Positions 5,299 to 39,739 of a stretch of DNA of 41,160 nt are shown piece after piece. The first letter of the stretch is position 1. The number at the start of each line of letters is the position of its first letter. Source of the stretch: an uncultured Erythrobacter sp. Its GTDB lineage: Bacteria > Pseudomonadota > Alphaproteobacteria > Sphingomonadales > Sphingomonadaceae. The translations under genes and the position numbers were made by a program. The stretch lies in the NCBI GenBank assembly GCA_938015255.1, contig CALLQC010000006.1:1-41160 (forward strand), read 5' to 3'. The notes beneath the pieces are model-generated. The model had not been told where the DNA came from and searched no databases. It saw only the letters and a program-made list of their open reading frames with translations.

Positions 5299-5307
5299 CC
5301 CTGCCGG

Positions 5308-10728: not shown

Positions 10729-10754
10729 CCAACCACAGGAAAGCTCGACGCAAG

Positions 10755-12317
10755 CTATTTCTGCAGCCCCCCATCGACCAGTCTTACAACTCCACCCGCA
10801 TCGTCTTGCAGTTCTGCAGGCAGCAACTCTTGAGGCATATCTTGATAGGAGACCGGTCTCAGGAACCGTTCGATGGCCATTGTTCCGACCGAGGTGCTGC
10901 GCGGATCGGATGTGGCAGGGAACGGTCCGCCGTGCACCATCGCGTGGGTAACGTCGACTCCCGTCGGCCAACCATTGGCGATGACCCGCCCGGCAAGGCC
11001 TTCAAGCGTAGGCAGCAAAGCCTTGGCGATGTCATGATCCGTCTGAGACATATGGAGGGTGGCGGTGAGTTGACCTTCCATCCGTTTCAAGATTGCATGA
11101 ATCTCATTAATATCGTTGCATTGCACAAGGATCGAAACCGGGCCGAAGATCTCATCAGCCAGCGCCGGGTTAGCGAAGAAATCATCGCCGCTCACCGTGT
11201 AAATTTGCGCCTGCGCGCCTGCCTCACCGTCGCCCTTTCCTTTACCACAAGCCGTGGCGGCGGCATCAGCAGCCAAAGCGCCGACGCCGCTTTCGAAAGC
11301 CTTGCGGATCGCCGGAGTAAGCATGGTTTGCGCCGCGACCTCGGCAAGCGCTTCAATGGCAGAAGTGCGAAAACGGTCGAGTGCCGCGCCCTTGACGCCT
11401 AGAACGATACCGGGATTGGTGCAGAATTGTCCGGCCCCGAGCGAAAGCGAACCAGCATAGGCAGTGCCGAGAGTATCAGCAGCCTCGGCCAGCCGGCCGG
11501 GCAAGAGAATGACCGGATTGACGCTACTCATTTCAGCAAAGACCGGGATCGGCACCGAACGCGCGGCAGCATACTCCATCAACGCCAGCCCACCCCCGCG
11601 CGATCCGGTGAAACCGACTGCCGCGATGCGCGGATCTTTGACCAGGGCCTCACCCAGCGCATTCCCGGAACCGTTCAAAAGCGAGAACACACCGCCTGGC
11701 AGACCACATTCGGCAACAGCTTCACTGATCGCTGTGGCGACCAGCTCGGATGTTCCAGGGTGTGCTGGATGGCCTTTCACCACGACACAGCAGCCCGCCG
11801 CCAGAGCCGAAGCGGTGTCCCCGCCGGCTACTGAAAACGCGAGGGGGAAATTGCTCGCACCGAAAACTGCAACTGGGCCAAGCGGGACCATCCGCAAGCG
11901 CAGATCAGGCTTAGGCGGGGTGCGTTCGCGGTCGGCGTGATCAACCCTCGCGCGCTGCCAGTGCCCTGCTTCGAGGTAGTCGGCGAACATTCGCAGTTGG
12001 CCCACTGTCCGTCCGCGCTCACCGTTAAGGCGCGCCTCTGGCAGTCCGCTCTCACGCATTGCCCGCTGCGTGAGTTGATCTCCAAGCGCATCAATCTTCG
12101 CTGCCGCAGTACGGAGAAATACCGCCCGCTTTGCGGCAGGAAGCGCACCGTAAGAGCCTTGCGCGGCAGCAGCCGCTTCGCAAGCATCGGCCACGTCAGC
12201 CCTGGTCGCTTCATAGAAATCCGGTTCGAAGGTTTGACCGCTGGCGGCGTCCACCGCACGAAAAGTTGAGTCAGATGCGCGGCTAGCACCAGCGATGAAG
12301 TTTTGGCCTGTCAACAT
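10755..12317 (-). CDS. 2-oxoglutarate-semialdehyde (2,5-dioxopentanoate) dehydrogenase
   Basis: 520 residues, NAD(P)-dependent aldehyde dehydrogenase of the KGSADH type. It shows the N-terminal MLTGQNFIAG, the cofactor segment VFGASNFPLAFSVAGGDTASALAAGC, FTGSRGGG, the general base Glu262 in FAEMSSVNP and the nucleophile Cys299 in LGAGQFCTNPG. The SNFPLAFS, EMSSVNP and GQFCTNPG forms are characteristic of the dioxopentanoate branch of the family. It oxidises 2-oxoglutarate semialdehyde to 2-oxoglutarate, the last step of the Weimberg route; the Caulobacter equivalent is named xylA, a name avoided here because it also means xylose isomerase. It heads an operon with the DUF5060 gene and is divergent from the sugar permease across a shared operator at 12387-12402. 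Cytoplasmic. Confidence 0.9.
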   Translation of the reverse strand: MLTGQNFIAGASRASDSTFRAVDAASGQTFEPDFYEATRADVADACEAAAAAQGSYGALPAAKRAVFLRTAAAKIDALGDQLTQRAMRESGLPEARLNGERGRTVGQLRMFADYLEAGHWQRARVDHADRERTPPKPDLRLRMVPLGPVAVFGASNFPLAFSVAGGDTASALAAGCCVVVKGHPAHPGTSELVATAISEAVAECGLPGGVFSLLNGSGNALGEALVKDPRIAAVGFTGSRGGGLALMEYAAARSVPIPVFAEMSSVNPVILLPGRLAEAADTLGTAYAGSLSLGAGQFCTNPGIVLGVKGAALDRFRTSAIEALAEVAAQTMLTPAIRKAFESGVGALAADAAATACGKGKGDGEAGAQAQIYTVSGDDFFANPALADEIFGPVSILVQCNDINEIHAILKRMEGQLTATLHMSQTDHDIAKALLPTLEGLAGRVIANGWPTGVDVTHAMVHGGPFPATSDPRSTSVGTMAIERFLRPVSYQDMPQELLPAELQDDAGGVVRLVDGGLQK

Positions 12318-12386: not shown

Positions 12387-12402
12387 TAGGTAGCGCTACC
12401 AT
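12387..12402. promoter_or_regulatory. LacI-type operator, site 1 (permease / dehydrogenase divergent region)
   Basis: The perfect 12-base palindrome GGTAGCGCTACC at 12389-12400, with flank AT on the right, matches the shared consensus ATGGTAGCGCTACCAT except for the two outer left bases. The central CG step and even symmetry are typical of LacI-family operators. It sits between the divergent semialdehyde dehydrogenase and sugar permease genes, 44 bases from the permease ATG, so it can control both directions. It is one of four copies in the window. Confidence 0.85.
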
Positions 12403-12445: not shown

Positions 12446-13858
12446 ATGAACACTTCGGGTCATCAGGATCAGGCCGCTAATTTAGGCCTGATTTCGGCAA
12501 TTGTCGCGGTTGCGACTTTAGGTGGTTTTCTGTTCGGTTTCGACAGCGGGGTCATCAACGGTACGGTTGATGGCCTGCGGCTCGCATTCGATTCGGACGA
12601 TGTCGGCACAGGCTTCAACGTGGCTTCGATGCTGCTGGGGTGTGCGGTCGGTGCATTTCTTGCAGGCCGCTTGTCTGACATTCTGGGCCGCAAGAAAACC
12701 TTATTGCTTGCTGCTGCCTTCTTTATCGTCAGCGCTTTTGGCTCTGGCATAGCCGGATCGTCGACTGAATTCATCATCTACCGCATCATCGGCGGCTTCG
12801 CAGTAGGCGCAGCCAGCGTTCTTGCGCCCGCCTATGTCAGCGAAGTCACGCCTGCCCATTTGCGAGGTCGGCTTTCGAGTGTTCAGCAGATCATGATCAT
12901 CGTCGGCCTGACGGCCGCGTTTCTTTCGAATTATCTGCTTGCTGAAAATGCGGGCGCGTCGACCAATGCGTTCTGGCTCGGCTTCGAAGCGTGGCGCTGG
13001 ATGTTCTGGATTGAATTGGTACCGGCGACCGTCTTCCTGATCGCGTTGCTTTTCATTCCGGAAAGCCCGCGCTTTCTGGTGAACAAAGGCTTGCCTGAAG
13101 AGGCGGAAAATGTGCTGGGACGCTTGTTTGGTGAAGGTTTCGCAGCACGCAAAGTGGGCGAAATTCAAGAGTCGGTCGCGCAGGATCGCGAACCACGGCT
13201 TTCCGACCTTATAGACAAAACCAGCGGCAAGGTCCGCACCATCGTCTGGGTCGGCATTGGCCTTGCTGTGTTCCAGCAACTCGTCGGCATCAACGTCGTA
13301 TTCTATTATGGCGCCGTGCTGTGGCAGGCGGTTGGCTTTTCTGAAAGCGACGCTCTCAAAATCAACATTCTTTCGGGCACCCTGTCAATTGGCTCCTGCC
13401 TCATCGCCATTGCTCTGATCGACAAGATCGGGCGAAAGCCGCTCTTGCTGATTGGCTCAATCGGTATGGCGATTACACTCGGCATGATGGCTGTCGCCTT
13501 CCAGAGCGGCACATTTGCCGATGGCTCGCTGCAATTGTCGGACAGCGCCGGGCTTACCGCCCTGATCGCGGCTAATGCCTATGTTGCGCTGTTCAACTTC
13601 AGCTGGGGTCCGGTTATGTGGGTCATGCTCGGAGAGATGTTCCCCAACCAGATCCGCGGTTCAGGTCTTGCGGTAAGCGGGTTTTCGCAGTGGATCGCCA
13701 ATTTCGGAATCACCATGACTTTTCCGATCATGCTCGGAACAATCGGCCTTACCGGAGCCTATGGCTTCTACGCCCTAAGCGCAGCCATCTCTGTCCTGTT
13801 TGTGTGGATGATGGTACGCGAGACGAAGGGGATCGAGCTGGAGCAGATGACCGGATGA
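12446..13858 (+). CDS. Sugar:proton symporter, MFS sugar-porter family (xylose-type)
   Basis: 470 residues, 12 predicted transmembrane segments. Sugar-porter signatures are present: GRLSDILGRKK after segment two, the YVSEVTPAHLRGRLSS segment around residue 130, PESPRFLV near residue 205 at the start of the central loop, QQLVGINVVFYYG after it, DKIGRKP, and a C-terminal RETKG(I)ELEQM. These resemble XylE/GalP-type porters that import D-xylose or hexoses with protons across the inner membrane. Context (Weimberg genes, xylanase, common operator) makes xylose the most likely substrate, although other pentoses or hexoses cannot be excluded. A GGGAGG element stands upstream of the ATG. It is followed after 33 bases by a halogenase-family gene on the same strand, probably in one transcript. 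Confidence 0.9.
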   Translation: MNTSGHQDQAANLGLISAIVAVATLGGFLFGFDSGVINGTVDGLRLAFDSDDVGTGFNVASMLLGCAVGAFLAGRLSDILGRKKTLLLAAAFFIVSAFGSGIAGSSTEFIIYRIIGGFAVGAASVLAPAYVSEVTPAHLRGRLSSVQQIMIIVGLTAAFLSNYLLAENAGASTNAFWLGFEAWRWMFWIELVPATVFLIALLFIPESPRFLVNKGLPEEAENVLGRLFGEGFAARKVGEIQESVAQDREPRLSDLIDKTSGKVRTIVWVGIGLAVFQQLVGINVVFYYGAVLWQAVGFSESDALKINILSGTLSIGSCLIAIALIDKIGRKPLLLIGSIGMAITLGMMAVAFQSGTFADGSLQLSDSAGLTALIAANAYVALFNFSWGPVMWVMLGEMFPNQIRGSGLAVSGFSQWIANFGITMTFPIMLGTIGLTGAYGFYALSAAISVLFVWMMVRETKGIELEQMTG

Positions 13859-13891
13859 CGATTGGCAAACCCATTTCGAGGGCTTAGCCTC

Positions 13892-15415
13892 GTGACTATG
13901 GGAGCGAGCAAGCCAGTGCGTGTCGTGGTGCTCGGCGGGGGAACCGCAGGGTGGATGTCTGCCGCAGGTGTTGCAAAGCTTCTCCCCAGCACTGCTTCGG
14001 TCACTCTGGTCGAGAGTGAAGATATCGGGATTGTCGGGGTGGGGGAAGCGACGCTTCCCCATATCCGCGGTTATGTCGAGCGTCTCGGCATCGACGAAGC
14101 GGCGTTCATGAAGGCGACCCACGCGACCTATAAGCTGGGTATCGACTTCCGCGATTTCGGTCGTATTGGCGAGAGTTACATTCACCCCTTTGGCAGCTTT
14201 GGGGAAGAAGTTGCCGGAGTAGGGTTTCATCATTGGTGGCTCGAACAAAGGCGGCGAGGCATGGCAGGCGATCTAGGCGATTACTCGCTTGCGGTAGCCG
14301 CCGCTCGCGCGAACCGCTTCACGCCGCCGGCGCAGGACATGTCGCTCGCTTCGACCTATGGCTATGCTTATCAGTTCGATGCGACCCTATTCGGTCCCTT
14401 CATGCGTGAATTTGGTGTTGCCATTGGAGTGACCCGGATCGAAGGGCTGGTCACGTCTGTTGAGCGTGACGCCGAAAGCGGCAATGTCACCGCTCTCATC
14501 CTGAAGGACGGTCAGCGCGTTGAAGGCGATCTGTTCATCGATTGCTCGGGCTTTCGTTCGATCCTGCTGGGTCAGGAACTCGAAGAAGACTGGCAGGATT
14601 GGACGCATTGGTTACCCTGCGACCGTGCGGCGGCCATGCCCTGCACGCACGAAACAACCGATATCCGGCCCTACACTGTCGCAACCGCCATGCCCGCCGG
14701 GTGGCGCTGGCAGATCCCGCTCCAGCACCGGATGGGCAATGGCTATGTCTTCTCAAGCGCGTTCTGCGACGAGGATCACGCCTGCGAAACCATTCGTAAC
14801 GCCGCAGAAGGCGAACCACTCGGCGATCCGCGCGTACTGCGCTTCCGCCCCGGTCGCCGGACACGGTCATGGAGTCACAATGTCGTTGGCGTCGGGCTTT
14901 CAAGCGGGTTCCTCGAACCGCTTGAATCCACATCGATCTATCTTGCGCAGATGGCAATCACCTATCTGATCGAGCTGTTTCCCGACAACGGCATCGTGGA
15001 TCCCCGCGACCGCGATGAATTCAACCGGTTGGTGGATATGGAATATGACCGCGTGCGCGATTTCCTGATCCTGCACTACAACGCGACGACGCGCGACGAT
15101 TCCGAATTCTGGAATCACGTTCGCACGATGAAACTGCCAGACAGCCTCGAAGACAAGATGGAACTATGGCGCCGCGCTGGGCGGATCGAGAAATATTCGG
15201 ACGGACTGTTCTACGATGCCAGCTGGATCGCAGTCTATATCGGACAGGGTATCATGCCCGAACGTCACGATGCCCGTGCCTCGCTTGGTGATCCCGCACG
15301 GATCGGAGCGGCGCTTGACGGATTGAAGCGCGCGATTGCGAACGAAGTGTCCGGCATGCCGGGCCATCTCGATTATCTCAAAGGCAACATATCGCGGCTG
15401 GCCGAGGCAGCGTGA
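13892..15415 (+). CDS. FADH2-dependent halogenase family protein (tryptophan-halogenase-like), copy 3
   Basis: 507 residues. The FAD-binding GGGTAGW is at residues 15-21, GEATLP at 51-56, the halide/hypohalite channel Lys in TYKLGIDF (Lys81), the signature WRWQIP at 271-276 and the Glu in LEPLESTSIY (Glu345). Lys and Glu correspond to PrnA Lys79 and Glu346, so the protein looks catalytically competent. Known enzymes chlorinate or brominate indoles or phenols using FADH2 from a partner reductase; the substrate here is unknown. There is no signal peptide, so it is cytoplasmic. The GTG at 13892 is chosen because GAGGG lies nine bases upstream; an ATG follows two codons later. Its stop overlaps the GTG of the next gene by four bases (GTGA), and the permease gene precedes it. 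Confidence 0.88.
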   Translation: MTMGASKPVRVVVLGGGTAGWMSAAGVAKLLPSTASVTLVESEDIGIVGVGEATLPHIRGYVERLGIDEAAFMKATHATYKLGIDFRDFGRIGESYIHPFGSFGEEVAGVGFHHWWLEQRRRGMAGDLGDYSLAVAAARANRFTPPAQDMSLASTYGYAYQFDATLFGPFMREFGVAIGVTRIEGLVTSVERDAESGNVTALILKDGQRVEGDLFIDCSGFRSILLGQELEEDWQDWTHWLPCDRAAAMPCTHETTDIRPYTVATAMPAGWRWQIPLQHRMGNGYVFSSAFCDEDHACETIRNAAEGEPLGDPRVLRFRPGRRTRSWSHNVVGVGLSSGFLEPLESTSIYLAQMAITYLIELFPDNGIVDPRDRDEFNRLVDMEYDRVRDFLILHYNATTRDDSEFWNHVRTMKLPDSLEDKMELWRRAGRIEKYSDGLFYDASWIAVYIGQGIMPERHDARASLGDPARIGAALDGLKRAIANEVSGMPGHLDYLKGNISRLAEAA

Positions 15416-16884
15416 GCGAAGCACGCGAGCCTCTGCGCAGAATTGTCGTTGCCGGGTCGGGACAGATCGGCGCGCTTGCAGCGATAGCATTGAAGCGCGC
15501 TTTGCCCGGCTGCGAGGTGATCGTGATCGGGACGCAGCAATCGCCCGGTGCCTTTGCCGACAATGCGAATACCGCCCTGCCCTTCACCAACAAGCTGCAC
15601 GACAGGCTGGGCATATCCGAAGCCCAGATCGTGGGGCAGGCTGGCGGGAGCCACCGGCTTGTTACCCGCTATTTTGGTTGGAGTGGTCAGGGCAGCCACG
15701 GTGCCGCCTCCTATGGCGCACCAAGTGACCCGGGACTGCAAACTGCATTCACGCGCGATTGGGGCGGCGGATCGAAGAATGCGACCACCACGCGTCCGAT
15801 ACAGACAATGGCCGAAGCGCTAGCTGATGCCGGTCGCTTCGCCATACCGCCAGATGACCGCGAAACTCCGCTTTCGCAAATCGACTATGCGCTGAGATGG
15901 AACGTGCCCGCGTACCGACAAATCCTGATCGGAACCGCACAACGGCTCGGTATCGTGCATGTCGATGGGGCAATCGGAGCGATTCGCCTTGATGGCGAGG
16001 GAAACCTGGCCGGACTTACCATTCCGGGGCAGGGCGAGATTGAGGCTGATATGTTCGTCGATTGCGGCGGGCCTGCCGCTCCTTTACTCTCGCAAATGCC
16101 GGGTTTCGGGCGTAAAGATTGGAGCGCTTACCTACCTGTTCGCCGCGTTCATTATGCGCAGCCGGGTGATGCAATGCTCGCGCTAGAGGACAGGGTTACT
16201 TTGCTGTCGGAAGGCTGGCTTAGCGAACATGCCGGCCGCGATGGCTTGCAATCCACACTGGCCTGCCCTGACGCGGTGGACAATATCGCCGTTGCCCGCG
16301 CGCTCGGAAGCCCGCCAGCAATCTCGGTCGATCTGGCCCCGGCGCGGTGCCGCGAGGCGTGGATCGGGAACGTGGTGGCGCTCGGCGATGCGACTGCACA
16401 ATTCGAACCGCTTGCAGGGTTACCTCTGGACCTCGCACACCGCCAGCTTGCGCTTCTGATCGAGACATTGCCGGGTCGTCATATCGAGCCATTGGAACGC
16501 GCTGAATTCAATCGTCGCGCCGCATTGATGATGGATGGGGTGCGCGATGCCTTGGCGCTGCATTATGCCGCGCCGCATGCTGCCAAGATTTTCAGGGCCG
16601 AAGCAACAGACCATGTTGTACGAACAGTGGATCAGTTCACGCGGCGCGGAAGGATGCCATTTCAGGAAGAGGCGCCGTTCCTGACTTTCGAAACCATGGG
16701 CTTGCTCGGCGCGATGGGTTTCGCACCGGGTACGCCTCCGCAATTCTCCGAGATGGACCCGCGACAGATCGAAGCAACACGCCGGACGGCTGCGACCAAG
16801 GCGCAGGCAGCGTTGGAATTTGCACCGCCCTACCCGCAATGGATGGCGTCCACACTCGAGTCTATGAAAGCGCAGACCGGATGA
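15412..16884 (+). CDS. Divergent halogenase-family flavoprotein lacking catalytic residues
   Basis: 490 residues. The overall layout follows the halogenase family (N-terminal VVAGSGQIGALA dinucleotide motif, MFVDCGG at about 214, IGNVVALGDATAQFEPLAG at 318-336, then ERAEFNRRAALMMDGVRDALALHYAA). The active-site markers are missing: the Lys of the channel is Arg82 (HRLVTRYFGW), the WxWxIP block is replaced by unrelated sequence, the second Glu of EPLES is Ala335, and GEATIP is lost. The Rossmann Gly pattern is altered but could still bind a nucleotide. The frame is long, intact and has normal codon use, so it is not simply decayed. It is coupled to the intact halogenase upstream by a GTGA overlap, which suggests a partner or regulatory subunit; a flavoprotein with another activity is the alternative. 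Its 3' end overlaps the convergent cupin gene by 23 bases. Confidence 0.75.
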   Translation: MSEAREPLRRIVVAGSGQIGALAAIALKRALPGCEVIVIGTQQSPGAFADNANTALPFTNKLHDRLGISEAQIVGQAGGSHRLVTRYFGWSGQGSHGAASYGAPSDPGLQTAFTRDWGGGSKNATTTRPIQTMAEALADAGRFAIPPDDRETPLSQIDYALRWNVPAYRQILIGTAQRLGIVHVDGAIGAIRLDGEGNLAGLTIPGQGEIEADMFVDCGGPAAPLLSQMPGFGRKDWSAYLPVRRVHYAQPGDAMLALEDRVTLLSEGWLSEHAGRDGLQSTLACPDAVDNIAVARALGSPPAISVDLAPARCREAWIGNVVALGDATAQFEPLAGLPLDLAHRQLALLIETLPGRHIEPLERAEFNRRAALMMDGVRDALALHYAAPHAAKIFRAEATDHVVRTVDQFTRRGRMPFQEEAPFLTFETMGLLGAMGFAPGTPPQFSEMDPRQIEATRRTAATKAQAALEFAPPYPQWMASTLESMKAQTG

Positions 16885-17878
16885 TGGAGCGCATCCGGTG
16901 AAACAGGTCAGGCCCAGCATCAGCCATGATGCCGCGCGCATGTTCAGGCAGGTGTGACACCGGATCGCCCTTCTGTTCGAACACATAGAAATCCAGAAGA
17001 CCCCGCCAGACCTCCCGCTTTTCAGGCGGCATATGTCGGAAAGAGAGTATCGCGTGAAGCAGAGCATCGTAAGGGCTGCCAATCCCTTCAGGAAGCCCAT
17101 CAGACCACCAGTAGTTCACTAGGATGCTTACGGCTGCGAGCGATTCAACCCCGTGCCACCAGCAATAGGGTATGTAGACCGCATCGCCCGGCTGAAGTGT
17201 TGCGACCTGCGCCTGTGCCCATGCTTGAGCAAACTTTGGATGAGTATCGAGATCAGGACTGGCAAGGTCCACCATGCTGACCGGTGTGCCCGCAGGTGTG
17301 AGATCGAACGGACCGGGATAAAGATTGGCCGTCTGATCCGGAGGGAAAATAGTGAAACGCCTTTGTCCGGCCACGCAACAGGCGATGTTCTCCTTGATAT
17401 CGAAATGCGGCGCGACACGGATGCGGTTGCCGATCCAGATGCGGGGTTCGACACCGCGGAGGAAGGGCAATCGGGTTTCCGCGGCAAGGTGTGGAAGTAG
17501 CTCCGGGATCGACTCCGATTGGATCGCCATACCCGGCGGATCAACAACCTCATCAGCGCGCAAGAGGTCTGCGAGGAAGGTTTCGAGCTGTCCCTTCCCC
17601 TTCATGAAATTCAGCCCCGACAAATTTTCGTTGTAAAAGAAGCGACCGCCTTCGCACGGCGCTGCGGCGATCGCGGAGACCGGACGAGTGCTTCCCCCTC
17701 GCAGGATATGTTCAACGACAGCCTGATCGCTCCGAGTTGCAGCCTGTACCACAGGCCAGTCGTCCACCAGCCCGCGCATCACCACAGGCTGACCCGCTGC
17801 CCTGATTTCGCTGAGCGCCTGTTGCGTTACCTGGCCAGACCATTCCCTGACCAGTGCCGCTTCACCCAGATCCGTCAT
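16862..17878 (-). CDS. JmjC/cupin_8-type Fe(II)/2-oxoglutarate oxygenase-like protein A
   Basis: 338 residues. The N-terminal QPVVMRGLVDDWPVV is the usual start of cupin_8 (JmjC-like) proteins. The core has PRIWIGNRIRVAPHFDIKENIACCVAGQRRFTIFPP (metal ligands His158 and Asp160) and PGDAVYIPYCWWHGVESL (His242), giving the HxD...H facial triad, followed by ILVNYWW. Related enzymes (FIH-like) hydroxylate protein side chains or small molecules using 2-oxoglutarate and oxygen. The protein is cytoplasmic with no signal. Its ATG overlaps the stop of the upstream halogenase by four bases (ATGA), so it is translated with halogenase copies 1 and 2. The xylose pathway encoded here produces 2-oxoglutarate, the expected co-substrate. 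Substrate unknown. Confidence 0.85.
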   Translation of the reverse strand: MTDLGEAALVREWSGQVTQQALSEIRAAGQPVVMRGLVDDWPVVQAATRSDQAVVEHILRGGSTRPVSAIAAAPCEGGRFFYNENLSGLNFMKGKGQLETFLADLLRADEVVDPPGMAIQSESIPELLPHLAAETRLPFLRGVEPRIWIGNRIRVAPHFDIKENIACCVAGQRRFTIFPPDQTANLYPGPFDLTPAGTPVSMVDLASPDLDTHPKFAQAWAQAQVATLQPGDAVYIPYCWWHGVESLAAVSILVNYWWSDGLPEGIGSPYDALLHAILSFRHMPPEKREVWRGLLDFYVFEQKGDPVSHLPEHARGIMADAGPDLFHRMRSIIRSALS

Positions 17879-19410
17879 GCAGTGATTCGTTCGGATGCGG
17901 GGATTGCGCTGCCCTGTTGCGCCAGAAACTGACCCTGCATGGGCATTTGCGAAACCGCCTGAGCTACCACATCGCGAATATGGGCGAGTCTGCGCCCTGT
18001 TTCCGCTTCGTCAAGCAGGTGTGCCGCCGGGTGGTATCCGCCAGCCGGTGCTCCCTGCCCCACCATCACGGAAAGCCAACTCGTTTCGGTGAAAAGCTCA
18101 TTGTGTTCGCGAATGATCCGGCCTGAGCTGGCAAACATTTCGAGCTTTTCGCGCAGGCCGTCAGGCGGAGGCAGCTCGCGGCAATAGCGCCAGAATTCGG
18201 AGTCATCGCGCTCGGTCGCTTTGTAGTGGAGAACGAGAAAATCGCGGATGTCGATATATTCCTGTTCGTTCTCGCTGTTGAAACGCTCGATCTCCTTGGC
18301 GCTGAAGGCATTTGTCGGCCACAGCGTCAGCAGCCGTGCAATCGCTGACTGGACAAGATGGATCGAGGTCGACTCAAGCGGTTCAAGAAATCCGCCCGCA
18401 AGGCCAAGCGCGACCACGTTCTTGTCCCACGCTTTTTCACGATGGCCTGCTTGAAACCGCAAGCGATTTGGTTCCGCGAGCGGCTTGCCGTCGAGGTTGG
18501 TGACAAGCAGCTCTTCGGCCTCTGCCTCGTTCGTATGGGCTGAGGAATAGACATGCCCGTTTCCGATCCGGTGCTGCAGCGGAATACGCCATTGCCACCC
18601 CGCCGGACGAGCGGTCGAACGTGTGAGCGGAACGGCTTCGCCGCCGAGCTCGCACGGAATCGCTATCGCCCGGTCGCAAGGCAGCCATTTGGACCAATCG
18701 GTGAAAGGCACGCCCAGCGTCTGGCCCAGCAGAAGCGAACGGAATCCGGAGCAGTCAATGAACAGCTCCCCTTCCACCCGCATCCCGTTATCGAGCACCG
18801 CCGCCTTGATGAAACCGGTTTCGCCGTGTTGTTCGACACTAACGATGCGCCCTTCGACCCGTTTTACACCCTGTGCCTCGGCCTGCCCCCTCAGATACCG
18901 CGCATAGCGGCCTGCATCGAACTGGAAAGCATAACCCAGTTTTGACAGCGGCGAGTTGGGGTTCGTCCGATCAGGCCAGAAGAACTTGCCCGCTTTCCCC
19001 GCCATAGCAGCAATCGAATAGGCATCGAGATCGGTTGCATCGCCCAAAGCCTGGCCGCGAAGCCAGAAATGGTGGAATTCGATTCCCATCATGTCGATGC
19101 CATACGTGCCAAAAGGGTGCACGTAGCTGTGGCCCTTGCGCAGCCAGTCGACGAATTCGATCCCCAATTTGTAGGTAGCATGGGTTTGGCGCACGAACTC
19201 ATTTTCATCCAAGCCGAGCAAGGCATTGAATGCCTGAATTTGGGGGATCGTCGCCTCCCCCACACCGACGGTGCCGATCACATCGCTTTCGACCAATGTG
19301 AAAGACAGACCGGGCAGGTCGCCAAGCACTTTCGAAAGACCGGCGGCCGCCATCCAGCCAGCGGTTCCCCCGCCGACGATTACGACGCGCCTGATGGGTT
19401 CGCCGCTCAT
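17875..19410 (-). CDS. FADH2-dependent halogenase family protein, copy 2
   Basis: 511 residues with GGGTAGW (13-19), GEATIP (51-56), Lys81 in TYKLGIEFVDW, WQWRIP (272-277) and Glu346 in LEPLESTSIH, all equivalents of the PrnA catalytic and signature positions. It appears active and belongs to the same subfamily as copies 1 and 3. The ATG at 19410 overlaps the stop of copy 1 by four bases (ATGA) and has AAGGAAA upstream; a longer reading from 19437 would run into copy 1. Its own stop overlaps the start of cupin A in the same way, so copies 1 and 2 and cupin A form one tightly coupled operon. No signal peptide. Substrate specificity (indole, phenol or another aromatic group) cannot be read from sequence. 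Confidence 0.88.
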   Translation of the reverse strand: MSGEPIRRVVIVGGGTAGWMAAAGLSKVLGDLPGLSFTLVESDVIGTVGVGEATIPQIQAFNALLGLDENEFVRQTHATYKLGIEFVDWLRKGHSYVHPFGTYGIDMMGIEFHHFWLRGQALGDATDLDAYSIAAMAGKAGKFFWPDRTNPNSPLSKLGYAFQFDAGRYARYLRGQAEAQGVKRVEGRIVSVEQHGETGFIKAAVLDNGMRVEGELFIDCSGFRSLLLGQTLGVPFTDWSKWLPCDRAIAIPCELGGEAVPLTRSTARPAGWQWRIPLQHRIGNGHVYSSAHTNEAEAEELLVTNLDGKPLAEPNRLRFQAGHREKAWDKNVVALGLAGGFLEPLESTSIHLVQSAIARLLTLWPTNAFSAKEIERFNSENEQEYIDIRDFLVLHYKATERDDSEFWRYCRELPPPDGLREKLEMFASSGRIIREHNELFTETSWLSVMVGQGAPAGGYHPAAHLLDEAETGRRLAHIRDVVAQAVSQMPMQGQFLAQQGSAIPASERITA

Positions 19411-20963
19411 GCCAGCATTTCCTTTTCTTGGTGCCATGCACCGGCTTCGCGCAGAAATTGCTCCTGTGTCGGCAAACGCTCTGCCGTCGCGAGATAGGCC
19501 TCGCGCATCTGCTGCATAGCGCCCGCCACCTTCGCGGGGTCAAGTGTATCGGCAATGGGCTCATGCCGGTCGGGCACAATATTCTGTCCCAGCATCACAG
19601 CGACCCAGCTGGGCGTGGTGAAAAGTTCCGCATTCTCGCGGAAAACTCGCCCGCGGGACCGCCACAGTTCGATTTTGTTCGCAAGACTGTCGGGAATTTC
19701 CATTTCGCGGACATAACGCCAGAACTCGCTGTCGTCGCGCTGGGTAGCCTTGTAATGAAGGATGATGAAATCGCGCACATCCTCATAAACCTCTCGCATG
19801 CCGCGATTGTACTCATCGCGTTCGATAGGATTAACGGGATTGTCCGGAAACAGAGCAAAAAGGCGGGCAATTCCGTTTTGTATGAGGTGAATGCTCGTGG
19901 ACTCGAGTGGCTCGAGAAAGCCCGATGCCAAGCCCAGAGCGACAACATTGTGTGACCATGCCTTCTTACGCATCCCGGTCAGGAAGCGAAGCATGCGCGG
20001 CTCGGCCAATGACGGCCCTTCGAGGTTATCGAGCAGAATGCGCCGTGCCTCATCCTCCTCCATGTAGGCACTGGAAAAGACGTGCCCATTACCTGTCCTG
20101 TGCTGCAAAGGTATACGCCATTGCCATCCTGCTGCATGCGCTGTCGCTCTTGTGAATGGGGGCGGACTGGCGCGATTCCCCGTGGGGACCGCGATCGCTC
20201 GATCCATCGGCAACCACCGACTCCAATCCTCATACCCGGTTTCAAGGGCGTCCTCGATCAAAAGGCCCCTGAATCCGGAGCAATCTATAAAAAGATCACC
20301 TTCGACAACCGAACCGTCTTGCAAAACCACGGCCGACACATTGCCGCTCTCGCCGTCGCGCTGCACATTCGTGATGCGCCCTTCACGCCGGACCGCTCCA
20401 TCGGCCTCGGCGCGCCTCCGGAGAAATGCGGCATAGAGCGACGCGTCGAAATGGAACGCGTAAAAGATTTGCGAAACCAGGCTCTTGGCCTGCGAAGAAG
20501 GTCGACCGAAACGCCCTATTGATGCTGCGACCGAACTCATGGAATAGGAAGAAACCGGTCCAACCGCGGCGGGGCCGCTGCGCGCGAGTTCACGCAGGTA
20601 CAATTGGTGGAACGCGATGCCATGCAATTCCTGCCCATAACTCCCGAACGGGTGGAAATAGCGGTCGCCCTGCCTGCCCCAGTTCACGAATTCGATGCCG
20701 AGCTTAAACGTGCCCCGCGTTTCGCGAAGAAACTCGTTCTCATCTATCCCCAACATTGCGTTGAAGTTGCGTATTGGCGGAATTGTCGCCTCGCCAACTC
20801 CAACAATTCCAATTGCGTCGGACTCGACAAGGGTGATCGTCCTTTCGCCATCGTTGAAATAGCGTGACAGCGCCGCAGCGGCCATCCAGCCAGCCGTCCC
20901 GCCACCTACGATAACCACGCGCTTCACTCTGCTGCTGGTAACGGTACCTTCGTTATCAGGCAT
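19407..20963 (-). CDS. FADH2-dependent halogenase family protein, copy 1
   Basis: 518 residues with GGGTAGW (20-26), GEATIP (58-63), Lys87 in TFKLGIEFVNW, WQWRIP (280-285) and Glu354 in LEPLESTSIH. These are the FAD site, channel Lys, family signature and acidic catalytic residue of flavin-dependent halogenases. It is first in the operon with copy 2 and cupin A and divergent from the TonB receptor gene across 152 bases. The ATG at 20963 was chosen because GGGAGG stands nine bases upstream; a frame open to 21128 would overlap the receptor gene and adds residues unlike the family. Family members are often found beside TonB receptors in sphingomonads and xanthomonads (recalled context). No flavin reductase gene is visible in the window. 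Confidence 0.88.
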   Translation of the reverse strand: MPDNEGTVTSSRVKRVVIVGGGTAGWMAAAALSRYFNDGERTITLVESDAIGIVGVGEATIPPIRNFNAMLGIDENEFLRETRGTFKLGIEFVNWGRQGDRYFHPFGSYGQELHGIAFHQLYLRELARSGPAAVGPVSSYSMSSVAASIGRFGRPSSQAKSLVSQIFYAFHFDASLYAAFLRRRAEADGAVRREGRITNVQRDGESGNVSAVVLQDGSVVEGDLFIDCSGFRGLLIEDALETGYEDWSRWLPMDRAIAVPTGNRASPPPFTRATAHAAGWQWRIPLQHRTGNGHVFSSAYMEEDEARRILLDNLEGPSLAEPRMLRFLTGMRKKAWSHNVVALGLASGFLEPLESTSIHLIQNGIARLFALFPDNPVNPIERDEYNRGMREVYEDVRDFIILHYKATQRDDSEFWRYVREMEIPDSLANKIELWRSRGRVFRENAELFTTPSWVAVMLGQNIVPDRHEPIADTLDPAKVAGAMQQMREAYLATAERLPTQEQFLREAGAWHQEKEMLA

Positions 20964-21115
20964 TCGCCATGGCCTCCCTTGTAATGCAAAAATGCAACGC
21001 CCCTTGATAATCGTAAGATTTCGGTCTTGCAAACGCCTGAGTAAGACTTTAGCCAATGCCAATGGGAGAGCGTTACACGCACGAATGGTAGCGCTAACAT
21101 AGGGAGGGGAAACCT
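20964..21115. promoter_or_regulatory. Divergent control region between halogenase operon and TonB receptor
   Basis: These 152 bases carry the start signals of both transcripts. On the minus strand TTGCAA followed after about 15-17 bases by ATTATC/TATCAA is a possible promoter for the halogenase operon. Only one operator copy (21085-21100) is present, on the receptor side. A short inverted element TGCAAAAATGCA lies close to the halogenase ribosome binding site; its meaning is unknown. The exact promoters cannot be fixed from sequence. Confidence 0.4.
21085..21100. promoter_or_regulatory. LacI-type operator, site 2 (TonB receptor / halogenase region)
   Basis: ATGGTAGCGCTAACAT differs from the perfect palindrome by one base in the right arm (C to A). 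It ends one base before the ribosome binding site GGGAGGGG and 15 bases before the GTG start of the TonB receptor. A bound repressor would therefore lie either at the -10 region of a nearly leaderless promoter (GTTACA, 17 bases, TAACAT) or in the 5' leader as a block to elongation. It also lies in the region shared with the divergent halogenase operon. Confidence 0.8.
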
Positions 21116-24100
21116 GTGAAAAAGGCACTTCAGCTTAGCCGCTACGAGAATCGTGGCGTGAATTTTTCTCTTAATTTTCTGAAGACAGGGGCGTCGGTAA
21201 TTGCGGTCGGCACCTTGATTGCGGGGCAATCCGCCTACGCGCAAGAAAGTCAATCGGAAGAACCGGCTCAGGTCGATGACCAGTCCGGTGCTCAAGCTGA
21301 AGGGAACCAGATCATCGTTCGCGGTATCCGGCAATCCCTTGAAAATGCCCAGAACATCAAACGCAACGCCGACACGGTGGTTGATGCAATCACGGCTGAA
21401 GACATCGGCGCGCTGCCTGATCGTTCGGTCACCGAAGCTCTGCAGCGTGTGCCAGGCGTAGCGATCAACCGCTTCGCGGGCTCGAACGACCCCGACCACT
21501 TCTCCGTTGAAGGTTCCGGCGTAGTCGTGCGCGGTCTTAACTTTGTCCGCTCCGAATTTAACGGAAGAACCGCTTTTGCTGCCGGTATAGGTGGTCAAGC
21601 GCTCAACTTTGCCGACGTTCCGGCTGAGCTCCTTGGCTCGGTGATCGTCAGCAAAAACTCGACGGCTGACATGATTGAAGGCGGCCTTGCCGGCACGGTC
21701 AATCTCAATACGCGCAAGCCGTTTGACAATGACGGCTTCAAGATCGCGTTCAGCGCTGAGGCGAATTATGGCGACTTCGTCGAAGAATGGTCGCCAACTT
21801 TTTCCGGCTTGATCAGCAACACCTGGGACACAGAAATCGGACGCTTCGGTCTTCTGGCTTCCGCGTCCTATTCCCGGATCAGAAGCCGCGCAGATGGCCT
21901 CCAGGTCACGAACTTCCAGACGCGTGATGGCCAGTTGGTTGAAGAGGCTAACACTAATGGTCGCCTTGTCTGCCGCAATGCGTTGCCTGGCTCTGGTGAC
22001 GCGACAACGCTGCCTCCTGGACAATCTCCTTGTGGCACCGCGAGCACGCTCGGACCGGATGGATTTGTCGATCCAGCGGACCTGCGCTTTGCGCCGCTGG
22101 GTGGCCAGTTCAGAACTCAAGAATTCGATCGGAAGCGCAACGGCCTGTCTCTTGCTGCGCAATTCGAATCGGTCGACGGCAGGACGCAGATCACAGCGGA
22201 GTTTATTCGTTCACGCACAACCAACGCATGGGGCGAATACACTTTCGAGGCCGCACCCGATCTTGCTGAATATTCGACGCAGCCGCTTGGTTGTCAGCAA
22301 AATGACGCCGGTCCGCGCCGCATTCAGCCCGATGGCTCAGCCGGCGATCCCACCGTGCGTTCTCAATGCGCCGTGGGAGGATTTACCGACTACCAGTATG
22401 ATTCGAACAACCTGTTCCAGTCGGGCTATATCACCAATCCTAATAATGGCTGGCGCGGAAACCCGGGTACATCACCCTTCGTTCCGATTGGCGGTCTCCA
22501 GAACTCTCTGGCACGCCGTCAGGTCGACGAAGCGACGACCAACAATGACTACAGCATCTACATGAAGTCAGAGTTGACAGACCGGCTCACTTTCGAAGCC
22601 GATCTGCACTACGCGACTTCACGCAAGGAAAACCTCGACGTTACGATCTTCGGCTCCAGTTTTGCCGACTATGAGCTGGACATCACTGGTCGCCTGCCCA
22701 GGATCACTCCAAACGTTCCGAATTTCCTGAGCTACTCATGGGCTGGAGACAGCGACGCTCTTGCTCCGTTTGCCAGAGATCCTTCAACACCGGCATCGGC
22801 GGACGCAAACGCCGCCTACTTCTCTGATCCGCGTTTCCAGTTCTGGCGCGCAGCAATGGATCACATCGAGGACAGCACTGGCGAGCAATTTGCCTGGCGG
22901 GCGGACCTTGCCTACGAATTCGATGACGATAGTTTCCTGCGAGAAGTGAAGGCTGGCGTGCGCTTCCAGGATCGTGAGCAGACTGTGCGATACACGACCT
23001 ATAACTGGGGCGTGCTGAGCGAAGTCTGGGCGGGCGATCGTCCAATTAACTTTGCAGACACACCGGCATCGGAGAGCGCACCCTTTGCGTTTGACAACTT
23101 CTTCCGGGGCGACTCGCCTCCGCCTCCGTCTACACTCTACTATTCGGGCGATCTGACAGGCGACTATGCCGGCCTCCAGAACTTCGCTCTCGGTGTCAAT
23201 CAGGCATGGCAAGGCATCGGCGGTAACGCCGGCTGGGTGCCGCTCGACCAGAGGCCGGGGGCTATCGACGGTACGCCCTACATTCTGCCTGACATTCAGC
23301 CCGTCAGCCAGCGGGACGATGCTGCTTATATCAGCCTTCGCTTCGGCTCTGACAATTTTGCCGGTCTGCGTTTGGCCGGCAATATCGGCGTGCGTTATGT
23401 CAACACGAGATTTGACTCGACAGGTTCAATCGATTTGAGCGTTGTGCGGAGCAGTTTGCAGACTGACTTTGACACTCTGTGCGATGTTACCCCGCCGGCT
23501 GGCGCACCACCCGGTACAATCGTCACGCGTCCGGGTATCTGCGAATTGGGTGCTGCATCTTACGCAAACCTTCAGGACTTCGCCAACAGCGACCCAGGCT
23601 TCAACGTAGCCAGGAATAATTACGATTATTGGCTGCCCAGTTTCAACGCCAGAGCTGAACTGTCAGACGATCTACTCTTGCGCCTCGCAGCCTCACGTGT
23701 GCTGACGAGACCGGACAACAGCCTGCTTCGCAACTTCGTCAACGTAGGTGTCGATCTCGGCACAGGCGTACTCAGCGCAGGCGCGGGAAACCCATTCCTG
23801 CTGCCAGCAACAGCATGGCAGTTTGATGTATCGCTCGAGTGGTACTTCGCACCGGTTGGCCAGTTGACAGTCAACGGGTTCTACAAGGCCATCGACAACT
23901 TCTTCTTCAATGACGTTTCGGTCCGTGACATTACCAGTGGAAACCAGACCAACCAAGTTGTTGTAAGGGGTCCGGCAAACTTTGATGGAACCGGCAAGAT
24001 CAAGGGCTTTGAAGTCGCTTACCAACAAACCTATGACTTCCTGCCAGCACCGTTTGACGGACTAGGGGTTGCTGCGAACTACACGTTTATCGACAGTTCT

Positions 24101-24508
24101 GGCCTGCCAAACAGTTTTCTGAACGGCGGAGCTTCATCGACCATTGCGCCGAGCGGAAACCTGCCCCTGGAGCAGCTGTCGAAGCATAATGCAAACGCGA
24201 CGGTCTTTTATGAGAAGGGACCGGTAGCTTTGCGCGCTGCGTACAACTGGCGCTCTCGCTTCCTGCTGACCACCTCGGACGTCATCTTCCCATTCTTTTC
24301 GATCTTCAATGAGCCTACCGGCCAACTGGATGCATCGATCTTTGTGAACGTGACCGATAACATCCGTCTCGGCGTCCAGGGCGTAAACTTGCTCAACGAA
24401 GTAACCGAGACAACGCAGGCCTACACGGGTGACCCCAATGTGTTGGCACCGCGATCCTTTTTCATAAACGATCGCCGGTTCTCCTTCATCCTGCGCGGAA
24501 ACTTCTAG
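21116..24508 (+). CDS. TonB-dependent receptor (TonB-Xanth-Caul type), probable xylooligosaccharide transporter
   Basis: 1130 residues. A signal peptide ends at QSAYA|QES, a TonB-box-like NQIIVRGIRQS follows, then the plug domain (IKRNADTVVDAITAEDIGALPDRSVTEALQRVPGV, GVVVRGLNFVRSEFNGR, NSTADMIEGGLAGTVNLNTRKP) and a large barrel ending in RRFSFILRGNF. This fits the Xanthomonas/Caulobacter-type receptors that import plant oligosaccharides across the outer membrane. Operator and neighbours point to xylan or glucan fragments. The GTG at 21116 has GGGAGGGG before it; a GTG at 21158 would give a more usual signal peptide of about 27 residues and cannot be excluded. The gene ends with a strong terminator at 24554-24591. 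It is the only outer-membrane importer in the locus. Confidence 0.92.
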   Translation: MKKALQLSRYENRGVNFSLNFLKTGASVIAVGTLIAGQSAYAQESQSEEPAQVDDQSGAQAEGNQIIVRGIRQSLENAQNIKRNADTVVDAITAEDIGALPDRSVTEALQRVPGVAINRFAGSNDPDHFSVEGSGVVVRGLNFVRSEFNGRTAFAAGIGGQALNFADVPAELLGSVIVSKNSTADMIEGGLAGTVNLNTRKPFDNDGFKIAFSAEANYGDFVEEWSPTFSGLISNTWDTEIGRFGLLASASYSRIRSRADGLQVTNFQTRDGQLVEEANTNGRLVCRNALPGSGDATTLPPGQSPCGTASTLGPDGFVDPADLRFAPLGGQFRTQEFDRKRNGLSLAAQFESVDGRTQITAEFIRSRTTNAWGEYTFEAAPDLAEYSTQPLGCQQNDAGPRRIQPDGSAGDPTVRSQCAVGGFTDYQYDSNNLFQSGYITNPNNGWRGNPGTSPFVPIGGLQNSLARRQVDEATTNNDYSIYMKSELTDRLTFEADLHYATSRKENLDVTIFGSSFADYELDITGRLPRITPNVPNFLSYSWAGDSDALAPFARDPSTPASADANAAYFSDPRFQFWRAAMDHIEDSTGEQFAWRADLAYEFDDDSFLREVKAGVRFQDREQTVRYTTYNWGVLSEVWAGDRPINFADTPASESAPFAFDNFFRGDSPPPPSTLYYSGDLTGDYAGLQNFALGVNQAWQGIGGNAGWVPLDQRPGAIDGTPYILPDIQPVSQRDDAAYISLRFGSDNFAGLRLAGNIGVRYVNTRFDSTGSIDLSVVRSSLQTDFDTLCDVTPPAGAPPGTIVTRPGICELGAASYANLQDFANSDPGFNVARNNYDYWLPSFNARAELSDDLLLRLAASRVLTRPDNSLLRNFVNVGVDLGTGVLSAGAGNPFLLPATAWQFDVSLEWYFAPVGQLTVNGFYKAIDNFFFNDVSVRDITSGNQTNQVVVRGPANFDGTGKIKGFEVAYQQTYDFLPAPFDGLGVAANYTFIDSSGLPNSFLNGGASSTIAPSGNLPLEQLSKHNANATVFYEKGPVALRAAYNWRSRFLLTTSDVIFPFFSIFNEPTGQLDASIFVNVTDNIRLGVQGVNLLNEVTETTQAYTGDPNVLAPRSFFINDRRFSFILRGNF

Positions 24509-28302: not shown

Positions 28303-28318
28303 ATGGTAGCGCTACCAT
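28303..28318. promoter_or_regulatory. LacI-type operator, site 3 (GH3-GH10 / LacI divergent region)
   Basis: A perfect 16-base palindrome, ATGGTAGCGCTACCAT, the best of the four copies. It lies between the divergent GH3 operon and the LacI-family gene, so it may control both and allow autoregulation of the repressor. Confidence 0.9.
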
Positions 28319-28342: not shown

Positions 28343-28451
28343 GAATACCTGTAGAGAGTTTGCGCGAGCACCGTCCGATGTTCGATGCCCTATTCTGCCG
28401 ATGGCAAAGTGCAACTTGCCGCTCTTGGTCATCCAAGGCTATGATCGGGTC

Positions 28452-36821: not shown

Positions 36822-36825
36822 CCTA

Positions 36826-39381: not shown

Positions 39382-39424
39382 TTTCCCCTCCAATGCCCGC
39401 CGTTCGCAAGCAATAACGGTAGCC

Positions 39425-39440
39425 ATGGTAGCGCTACCAA
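39425..39440. promoter_or_regulatory. LacI-type operator, site 4 (GH3-cupin-GH5-xylX-xylB-xylC operon)
   Basis: ATGGTAGCGCTACCAA differs from the perfect palindrome in the last base only. It lies 43 bases upstream of the TTG start of the GH3 gene. Confidence 0.88.
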
Positions 39441-39453
39441 TTGTTGCGATCAA
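39425..39453 (-). promoter_or_regulatory. Promoter of the six-gene operon, -10 inside the operator
   Basis: On the minus strand TTGATC (39448-39453), 17 bases, then TACCAT (39425-39430). The -10 is the distal half of the palindrome, as in the dehydrogenase promoter at 12.4 kb. Confidence 0.6.
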
Positions 39454-39739
39454 TCGCGAATTTTCCGAAGCTTTGTTGACCGGGGGGGATAAGTGGGCGC
39501 GCGTACCGCGTTGTCCCAACGGCCCGCAGCATCGCTCGGCCTAACGAAGACATCCATGAGGGGAAACTGACATCAACTGGACCACATAAAATCGCGCATT
39601 GATTTCGATGCTCGCCAGTATCGTGGCCCTGTTGGTACCCCTCATGCACCCACAGATGCGCCCGTCCCCAGCGCTTCTACTCGCGAAACTTGCAGCAGGC
39701 ATGGGGTGGGACTTGCTACGGTCGAAGCGGTAGCGGCAA
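39441..39739. other. Intergenic region between the xylan operon and the fructokinase gene
   Basis: Apart from the -35 element next to operator 4, no convincing gene, terminator or repeat is seen here. A 41-codon plus-strand ORF (39608-39733, hydrophobic start MLASIVALLVPLM) has no ribosome binding site and no recognisable family; it may be a remnant. No second operator is present, so the fructokinase transcript coming from the right is not evidently linked to the xylan regulon. Confidence 0.3.

What the first reader, a model, noticed from the sequence alone, without database searches (positions are those of the whole stretch)
13892..20963. Three intact halogenase-family enzymes and two JmjC/cupin oxygenases inside a xylan utilisation locus
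Three enzymes keep FAD motif, channel Lys, WxWxIP and catalytic Glu, and are coupled by four-base overlaps to a cupin_8 protein or to a fourth family member. Known relatives act on indoles or phenols, but no indole or phenol pathway is in the window. Possibilities worth testing are halogenation or hydroxylation of ferulate/lignin-type aromatics carried in with xylan, modification of aromatic residues of a protein (for example one made for the TonB uptake system), or a signal molecule made when xylan is present. 2-oxoglutarate, the co-substrate expected for the cupins, is the end product of the pathway encoded alongside. I recall such halogenase, cupin and TonB receptor groupings in related genomes; their role is, to my knowledge, unresolved.
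Basis: partly seen in the sequence, partly recalled or inferred. Interest (0 to 1): 0.82.

Follow-up and report, generated by a model that had tools for sequence, protein, structure and literature searches.

The report
Halogenase cassette that tailors sugar receptors
Next to the gene for an outer-membrane sugar receptor lie three intact halogenase-family enzymes, one degenerate sister and a relative of protein hydroxylases; such enzymes sit beside these receptors in many bacteria and for several sugars, so they likely modify the receptor protein itself rather than plant aromatics, which would give this enzyme family its missing natural target.

Summary
H1, H3 and H4 keep the FAD motif, channel Lys, WxWxIP and catalytic Glu; H2 is a degenerate sister (Lys to Arg, Glu lost, no WxWxIP). 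cup1 and cup2 are Cupin_8 proteins nearest to FIH, JMJD5 and JMJD7. All lie in a xylan/Weimberg locus whose operons, halogenase operons included, share an operator-like palindrome. New here: (1) in 31 genomes 68 of 73 halogenase-family genes lie within 8 kb of a TIGR01782 sugar receptor; in a wider sample 54 of 60 clusters lie beside some TonB receptor; (2) in this genome the pairing recurs in maltodextrin and beta-glucan loci, which argues against lignin chemistry; (3) 33 of 34 four-member cassettes hold a degenerate member, nearly always second in its operon; (4) Cupin_8 or DUF6445 genes are in 70 of 143 halogenase loci and 0 of 27 loci of halogenase-free receptors; (5) halogenase-linked receptors are richer in Trp, mainly in predicted extracellular loops. 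Best reading: a receptor-dedicated modification cassette acting on aromatic residues of the receptor before export. Dedication to the receptor is well supported; chemistry and target residues are inferred, and phylogeny and sugar binding confound the Trp signal.

The parts
8887..10971 (-). DUF5060 / apiosidase-like glycosidase
   Evidence: Pfam
10755..12317 (-). Aldehyde dehydrogenase, likely 2-oxoglutarate semialdehyde dehydrogenase of the Weimberg pathway
   Evidence: Pfam Aldedh; substrate inferred from context
12388..12401 (+). Operator-like palindrome AGGTAGCGCTACCA (1 mismatch) upstream of the sugT-H1-H2 operon
12446..13858 (+). sugT: sugar porter MFS, XylE-like
   Evidence: Pfam and NCBIfam
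13862..15415 (+). H1: intact halogenase-family enzyme (ORF start TTG; first Met codon 13898)
   Evidence: PF04820 599 bits; K, E, WxWxIP present
15412..16884 (+). H2: degenerate halogenase-family protein, 4-base overlap with H1
   Evidence: PF04820 176 bits; catalytic Lys is Arg, Glu lost, no WxWxIP; diverges faster than H1/H3/H4
16862..17878 (-). cup1: Cupin_8 / JmjC-like, FIH-related, likely Fe(II)/2OG oxygenase
   Evidence: Pfam; nearest solved structures FIH, JMJD5, JMJD7; HFD and WWH
17875..19437 (-). H3: intact halogenase-family enzyme (likely start at 19410, giving an ATGA overlap with H4)
19407..20963 (-). H4: intact halogenase-family enzyme
   Evidence: nearest solved 9luq, BrvH 6frl, Xcc4156 6y1w
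21086..21099 (+). Operator-like palindrome TGGTAGCGCTAACA between H4 and the receptor gene
   Evidence: motif present in 19 of 19 window-type loci
21116..24508 (+). TonB-dependent receptor TIGR01782; invariant W631, W638 in a long, predicted extracellular loop; proposed substrate of the cassette
24676..25842 (-). GH10 xylanase family
25855..28260 (-). GH3 glycosidase
28304..28317 (+). Operator-like palindrome TGGTAGCGCTACCA
28401..29552 (+). LacI-family regulator
29402..31342 (+). Dihydroxyacid dehydratase family, likely xylonate dehydratase
31356..32240 (-). SMP-30/gluconolactonase family
32231..33088 (-). SDR, likely xylose dehydrogenase
33022..34143 (-). FAA-hydrolase family, likely 2-keto-3-deoxyxylonate dehydratase
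34188..35804 (-). GH5
35817..36875 (-). cup2: Cupin_8, FIH-related
36826..39519 (-). GH3 with C-terminal Exop_C (longest ORF; true start unknown)
39426..39439 (+). Operator-like palindrome TGGTAGCGCTACCA inside the 5' end of the longest GH3 ORF, at the head of the GH3-cup2-GH5 gene run

Best explanation
H1, H3 and H4 with the degenerate H2 and the cupin form what is likely an accessory cassette of the neighbouring TonB-dependent xylan receptor and likely modify aromatic residues, most likely tryptophans of its extracellular loops, on the receptor chain before it is exported. Shown by sequence: adjacency to receptors across genomes and across sugars, operator-like palindromes shared with the xylan genes, three intact active-site motif sets plus one conserved degenerate sister, and motifs of the open-site type that lacks the free-tryptophan-binding segment. 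Inferred: (1) the enzymes work in the cytoplasm, where reduced flavin is available, and meet the receptor as an unfolded or SecB-held chain; (2) each intact enzyme halogenates or hydroxylates an indole (or phenol) side chain; (3) the degenerate H2 acts as a partner or specificity subunit of H1; (4) the FIH-like cupin hydroxylates a further residue of the same chain; (5) the modified loops bind the glycan better or resist damage at the cell surface. Sugar-specific LacI-type control would switch receptor and modifiers on together.
For: Placement: 68 of 73 halogenase-family genes of 31 genomes lie within 8 kb of a TIGR01782 receptor; of the 5 others, 4 are on contigs without a TIGR01782 match and lie at or near a contig end, and 1 has a receptor of another subfamily 2.7 kb upstream. 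0 of 7 genomes without a TIGR01782 match (E <= 1e-60) has such an enzyme. 76 of the 80 loci hold a related receptor within 8 kb. Wider sample: 50 of 60 fetched clusters have a TIGR01782-like receptor within 8 kb and 4 more have another TonB receptor. Sugar-independent: xylan (C6), maltodextrin (C5, C86), beta-glucan (C141) in one genome. Partner-specific: for 56 of 60 enzymes the best match lies beside the same receptor type, and for 0 of 60 in the same genome. Oxygenases: Cupin_8 or DUF6445 relatives in 70 of 143 halogenase loci, 0 of 27 loci of halogenase-free receptors; cup1/cup2 are nearest to protein hydroxylases FIH, JMJD5, JMJD7. Enzyme type: closest to 9luq, BrvH and Xcc4156; the last two take indoles but not free Trp and have an open active site proposed to fit a peptide (PMC7336383, one section read); 0 of 344 intact family rows (duplicates included) has the YHG Trp-binding motif. 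Receptor: Trp 1.41% in 107 linked vs 0.80% in 38 unlinked receptors, Tyr and Phe nearly equal; excess mostly in long loops, 1.42 vs 0.39%; 49 linked receptors of the wider sample at 1.32%; W631 and W638 invariant in 47 linked receptors of 32-67% identity to the window's. W446 in 49 of 55 receptors with three or more family members and 0 of 24 with one. Co-regulation: palindromes at 12388, 21086, 28304, 39426; 0 of 100 shuffles reach the 5 matches; 19 of 19 window-type loci carry it, 0 of 14 maltodextrin-type, 2 of 15 single-enzyme type.
Against: No modified receptor has been shown. On the receptor tree the linked receptors are mostly one clade (6 changes); only 5 independent pairs exist, and the sign test cannot reach 0.05; two of the scattered linked rows (L063, L039) are second receptors of a locus. 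W631/W638 are absent from the maltodextrin-type and some other linked receptors, so there is no universal target residue. Loop tyrosines are enriched too (2.89 vs 1.73%), as sugar stacking alone would give. Total Trp does not rise with the number of enzymes (by eye), and the W446/W372 pattern gives only 4 independent pairs, about 2 in the same direction and the rest without difference. 5 of 60 clusters of the wider sample show no receptor in about 20 kb (their ORFs were judged by profile and by eye, not by Pfam). About half of the halogenase loci (73 of 143) show neither Cupin_8 nor DUF6445. The unlinked receptor set comes only from the window's order.
Confidence: 0.45

Rival explanations
1. 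The cassette is receptor-linked but acts on another envelope protein or peptide (for example a TonB/ExbD partner, a surface lipoprotein or a small secreted peptide) that works with the receptor; loop tryptophans only stack on sugars.
For: Loop Trp and Tyr are both enriched, as for sugar binding; no single Trp is shared by all linked receptors.
Against: The receptor is beside the enzymes in 76 of 80, 68 of 73 and 54 of 60 cases of three samples, and enzymes track the receptor type. A short conserved precursor peptide was not looked for, nor were other neighbours counted systematically.
Confidence: 0.17
2. The enzymes make a halogenated or hydroxylated small molecule (indole or phenol derivative) used as a signal or defence when a sugar receptor is induced.
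For: Close relatives act on free indoles in vitro (PMC7336383, PMC8269204).
Against: A shared diffusible product would not need a separate enzyme set per receptor type in one genome; no family of an indole or phenol pathway appears among the 30 window ORFs scanned (the two ORFs at 39740-41103 were not scanned).
Confidence: 0.17
3. The proteins do not catalyse a stable modification but act as flavoprotein chaperones or redox sensors for receptor assembly.
For: A degenerate sister is kept in 33 of 34 four-member cassettes, so a non-catalytic role likely exists for at least one member.
Against: 344 of 398 aligned family rows keep both Lys and Glu and 312 carry the exact six-residue active-site set (duplicates included).
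Confidence: 0.12
4. The enzymes halogenate or hydroxylate ferulate or other lignin-type aromatics that enter with xylan.
For: Position inside a xylan locus and shared operator-like palindromes.
Against: Same enzyme family beside alpha-amylase and GH16/GH3 loci of this genome and beside receptors of other Proteobacteria; no feruloyl esterase or aromatic-ring pathway family among the 30 window ORFs scanned.
Confidence: 0.05

Closest known systems
BrvH (6frl) and Xcc4156 (6y1w), group C flavin-dependent halogenases
   Same: Best named solved relatives of H4 (519 and 506 bits; 9luq, called only Tryptophan halogenase, 520); H1, H3, H4 have the GxGxxG, Lys, Glu and WxWxIP motifs, HPFG and EPLESTS, and no YHG Trp-binding motif; native substrate of BrvH and Xcc4156 unknown (PMC7336383)
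   Different: Those were studied as single enzymes with no stated link to receptors in the passages read (0 occurrences of TonB in PMC7336383); here three intact members and a degenerate one form a receptor-side cassette with a cupin
MibH (5uao), halogenase of a Trp in a lanthipeptide
   Same: Shows that this family can act on a Trp inside a peptide (passages of PMC8269204 and PMC7336383)
   Different: Distant (189 bits to H4); in a peptide biosynthesis cluster, not a receptor locus (recalled)
QhpG and LodB, flavoprotein maturases of Trp-derived protein cofactors
   Same: Flavoproteins of related fold that modify Trp in a partner protein encoded nearby (function recalled)
   Different: Matches far below the curated cut-offs (QhpG at most 30.5 of 240 bits, LodB 20.6 of 400)
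FIH / JMJD5 / JMJD7 protein hydroxylases
   Same: Nearest solved relatives of cup1 and cup2; HxD...H motif
   Different: At most 64.5 and 58.2 bits, mainly over the catalytic core; substrate of the bacterial proteins unknown
Xanthomonas CUT loci (sugar loci built round a TonB receptor)
   Same: Receptor, inner-membrane transporter, regulator, glycosidases; xylose-regulon palindrome upstream of receptor genes (PMC1790865, passages read)
   Different: The main text held of that paper does not contain the words halogenase or cupin

Membership tests
Flavin-dependent tryptophan-halogenase family (PF04820) | Profile match over cut-off | tested here: met
   H1, H2, H3, H4 at 599, 176, 610, 649 bits against a cut-off of 21
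Flavin-dependent tryptophan-halogenase family (PF04820) | GxGxxG, channel Lys, WxWxIP, catalytic Glu (H1, H3, H4) | tested here: met
   All four in H1, H3, H4
Flavin-dependent tryptophan-halogenase family (PF04820) | Channel Lys, WxWxIP, catalytic Glu (H2) | tested here: not met
   H2 fails all three; it is filed as a degenerate family member, not as a halogenase
Flavin-dependent tryptophan-halogenase family (PF04820) | Halogenates a substrate with FADH2, O2 and halide | not testable with these tools
   No bench data
Free-tryptophan halogenases (PrnA/RebH/PyrH type) | Trp4 motif (YYHGxxxYS-like, PMC8269204 passages) | tested here: not met
   No [YFH]YHG in H1, H3, H4 nor in any of 344 intact family rows
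Group C / BrvH-Xcc4156 type | HPFG-like second motif and Ser instead of Gly after EST | tested here: met
   HPFGS, HPFGT, HPFGS and EPLESTSI in H1, H3, H4; highest scores among named solved structures for H4. In the 344 intact rows EST-S in 308, EST-G in 4, H[PSG]FG in 274
Protein-Trp maturases QhpG/LodB | Score over the NCBIfam equivalog cut-off | tested here: not met
Cupin_8 / FIH-like 2OG oxygenase | Profile match and HxD...H iron motif | tested here: met
Cupin_8 / FIH-like 2OG oxygenase | 2OG-dependent hydroxylation of a protein residue | not testable with these tools
   No bench data
TonB-Xanth-Caul receptor (TIGR01782) | Profile over curated cut-off 310 bits; plug and barrel | tested here: met
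   638 bits; Plug and barrel; model pLDDT 81.8, matches solved TonB receptors

The most novel reading that the evidence does not exclude
An outer-membrane protein modification code: each intact halogenase-family enzyme of a cassette installs a halogen or hydroxyl on its own tryptophan in the extracellular loops of its own sugar receptor, guided by a catalytically dead sister, while the FIH-like cupin hydroxylates a further residue. Bacteria would thus build sugar receptors with halogenated or oxidised tryptophans in the glycan-binding vestibule, a class of bacterial protein modification that none of the papers found here describes.
Probability: 0.25. Interest if true: 0.93.

Novelty: new variant of a known kind. 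Interest (0 to 1): 0.74.

Why it matters
BrvH-type halogenases have been crystallised and assayed, yet their native substrates are unknown (PMC7336383). The close pairing with one receptor class, whatever the sugar, names a concrete candidate substrate that ordinary proteomics can test. If right, it adds a layer of post-translational control to nutrient uptake in a large group of environmental Proteobacteria, supplies protein-directed halogenases for biotechnology, and gives a role to a conserved pseudo-enzyme.

Tried and rejected
Universal target Trp: rejected, since W631/W638 hold only in the window-like clade of receptors. Total Trp count rising with the number of enzymes: not seen (by eye). 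W372/W446 appearing with multi-enzyme cassettes: strong as raw counts (47 and 49 of 55 vs 0 of 24) but too few independent pairs (of the 107 linked receptors 79 were used, those with two members or short flanks were dropped). Formal tree test of Trp-richness: 5 pairs, on average 3.8 to 4.7 of 5 in the expected direction and about 0 against, depending on the Trp threshold; it cannot reach 0.05. Search for repeated palindromes in the other sugar loci of this genome found nothing. Fold search of the receptor only confirmed a TonB receptor; no sugar receptor is named among the 50 best rows.

Literature: nine searches were made. Five gave no paper on the pairing at all or only off-topic ones; four with loose term counts found 73, 113, 35 and 167 papers, of which only the top 30, 20, 15 and 15 were listed, and no listed title or abstract start concerned the pairing. 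Passages were read in PMC7336383 (one section whole), PMC1790865, PMC8269204, PMC4052901 and PMC2996990. The library holds open-licence papers only, so absence from print is not shown; I recall annotation-level mentions of halogenase, SapC and cupin genes in Xanthomonas and Shewanella sugar loci, from no call. That the palindrome equals the Caulobacter xylose-regulon motif is recalled; a paper search for its letters found none.

Rows set aside: 4 of 42 unlinked receptors (L209, L129, L197, L205), because they lie at contig ends or on short contigs. 66 clusters were found in the wider sample after leaving out G000 and G015; 60 were fetched. In one search only up to 7 candidates per genome were scored. 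Receptor types were assigned by hand from the tree. Of the 34 four-member cassettes 29 come, whose bait was H4, so they are not an even sample. Many loci overlap or repeat; only the cassette count and the receptor set were freed of repeats.
Full report
WHAT IS THERE. The window is one whole 41-kb contig of a draft genome with 185 contigs; the closest relatives of H4 are in Erythrobacteraceae and other Sphingomonadales. From 12446 to 24508 it encodes a sugar porter, H1 and H2 (both +), then cup1, H3 and H4 (all -), then a TonB-dependent receptor (+). H1, H3 and H4 are full-length PF04820 proteins with all active-site motifs; H2 is a weak member without the channel Lys, the Glu or WxWxIP. cup1 and, among the glycosidase genes, cup2 are Cupin_8 proteins with an HxD...H motif whose nearest solved relatives are the protein hydroxylases FIH, JMJD5 and JMJD7. 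The rest is a xylan and Weimberg locus by family.

REGULATION. The palindrome TGnTAnCGnTAnCA occurs in front of the sugT-H1-H2 operon (12388, one mismatch), between H4 and the receptor gene (21086), between GH3 and LacI (28304) and inside the 5' end of the longest ORF of the second GH3, at the head of the GH3-cup2-GH5 run (39426). A fifth match, at 20936 with one mismatch, lies inside H4 and is probably chance. No shuffle of 100 reaches five matches; the mean is 0.52. In related loci the motif without mismatch is in 19 of 19 with the window's cassette, 0 of 14 maltodextrin-type and 2 of 15 single-enzyme type. So the halogenase genes here are likely part of the sugar regulon of the receptor. 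That the motif equals the Caulobacter xylose-regulon site is recalled; PMC1790865 reports a 20-bp palindrome upstream of xylose-induced receptor genes (passage), and the letters of ours are not in its text.

RECEPTOR PAIRING. In own genome and 30 relatives there are 73 halogenase-family matches (E <= 1e-20) and 78 TIGR01782 receptors (E <= 1e-60, two split matches joined). 68 of 73 lie within 8 kb of such a receptor. Of the other five, four are on contigs without a TIGR01782 match and at or near contig ends, and one has a Plug+barrel receptor of another subfamily 2.7 kb upstream. 37 of 78 receptors have a halogenase within 8 kb; 0 of 7 genomes without a TIGR01782 match has one. Of the 80 loci, 76 hold a related receptor within 8 kb; L046, L047, L090 and L102 do not. 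Among 199 Proteobacteria genomes, 26 carry the family at E <= 1e-60. Of the 66 gene clusters outside G000 and G015, 60 were fetched: 50 have a TIGR01782-like receptor within 8 kb, 4 more a receptor of another subfamily (L248, L258, L262, L266), in one (L269) the receptor lies in the overlapping locus L268, and 5 show none in about 20 kb (L227, L233, L239, L245, L246, by profile and by eye).

NOT XYLAN-SPECIFIC. The same genome has halogenase-receptor pairs beside alpha-amylase and LacI genes (C5, C86) and beside GH16, GH3 and LacI genes (C141). A role in ferulate or lignin chemistry is therefore unlikely. Enzymes follow the receptor: for 56 of 60 the best match is beside the same receptor type, and for none in the same genome (types assigned by hand). 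Relatives of Cupin_8 or DUF6445 are in 70 of 143 halogenase loci of at least 17 kb (51 and 28, 9 with both) but in 0 of 27 loci of halogenase-free receptors; the 27 come from the window's order only, and the 143 include repeats.

THE DEGENERATE SISTER. After removing repeats there are 174 loci with the family, 34 of them with four members. 33 of the 34 hold a member that has lost the Lys, the Glu or both; 31 have exactly one, and in the two that count two (L037, L040) the second is a gene with a gap at the Lys position; one (L057) has none. Of the 35 such members 25 lost both residues, 4 only the Lys, 3 only the Glu, and 3 have a gap at the Lys. In 30 of the 31 the degenerate gene is second in its operon, directly behind an intact one. 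29 of the 34 loci come. Orthologues of H2 are 52.5% identical to H2 (median of 16 loci), against 79.4, 71.9 and 73.4% for H1, H3 and H4. A fast-evolving yet retained pseudo-enzyme fits a partner or specificity subunit; that role is inferred.

RECEPTOR FEATURES. Linked receptors hold more Trp than unlinked ones (1.41 vs 0.80%; 107 vs 38; Tyr 3.28 vs 3.05, Phe 6.0 vs 6.5). The excess is mainly in the long, predicted extracellular loops (1.42 vs 0.39%; Tyr 2.89 vs 1.73), less in strands (2.07 vs 1.42%) (using strands of the AlphaFold model, pLDDT 81.8; which loops are outside is inferred from their length). 49 linked receptors of the wider sample average 1.32%. W631 and W638 are invariant in 47 window-like linked receptors and nearly absent from the unlinked (0 and 3%). 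Against this: the linked receptors are mostly one clade, only 5 independent comparisons exist, W631/W638 are missing from the maltodextrin-type linked receptors, and sugar-binding loops are expected to be aromatic anyway. I count this as suggestive only.

MECHANISM. The intact enzymes belong with BrvH and Xcc4156. Those do not act on free tryptophan, take indoles, have an open active site, and have been proposed to act on a peptide; their native substrates are unknown (PMC7336383; PMC8269204). None of the 344 intact rows here has the Trp-binding YHG motif. No signal peptide is apparent in the four proteins and cup1 (by eye), so the likely meeting point with the receptor is the cytoplasm before export. 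Together with a hydroxylase-like cupin this points to a receptor-dedicated modification cassette. Shown: pairing, sugar independence, motif state, shared palindromes. Inferred: protein substrate, residue, chemistry, partner role of H2, and benefit.

VERDICT. Observation confirmed; interpretation narrowed from three options to one favoured option, with about 0.45 on the specific mechanism. That the cassette serves the receptor in some way is much better supported than which atom is changed.

Noticed in passing
L212:2931-10422 (G006): A gene run with a TonB receptor of another subfamily, a sulfotransferase with TPR repeats and a BrvH-type halogenase; the pairing extends beyond TIGR01782.
   Followed up: partly
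L233:9203-14083: Halogenase followed by two small ORFs and two ORFs that look by eye like an ECF sigma factor and its regulator, with no TonB receptor seen within about 20 kb; may serve a receptor elsewhere through surface signalling.
   Followed up: no
L181:6783-7475 (own genome C5): DUF6445 protein (PF20043) between halogenase and receptor in the maltodextrin-type locus, where no Cupin_8 lies; relatives in 28 of 143 halogenase loci.
   Followed up: partly
window 2235-7208: Exosortase, DUF3485 and a weak PEP-CTERM protein near a bacterial sugar transferase, unrelated to the finding.
   Followed up: no
window 7810-8661: Sulfotransferase family gene next to a hexapeptide-repeat transferase.
   Followed up: no
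L048, L049: Sphingomonas-type cassettes with only three members (H1, degenerate, H4) whose receptors also lack W372 and W446.
   Followed up: partly
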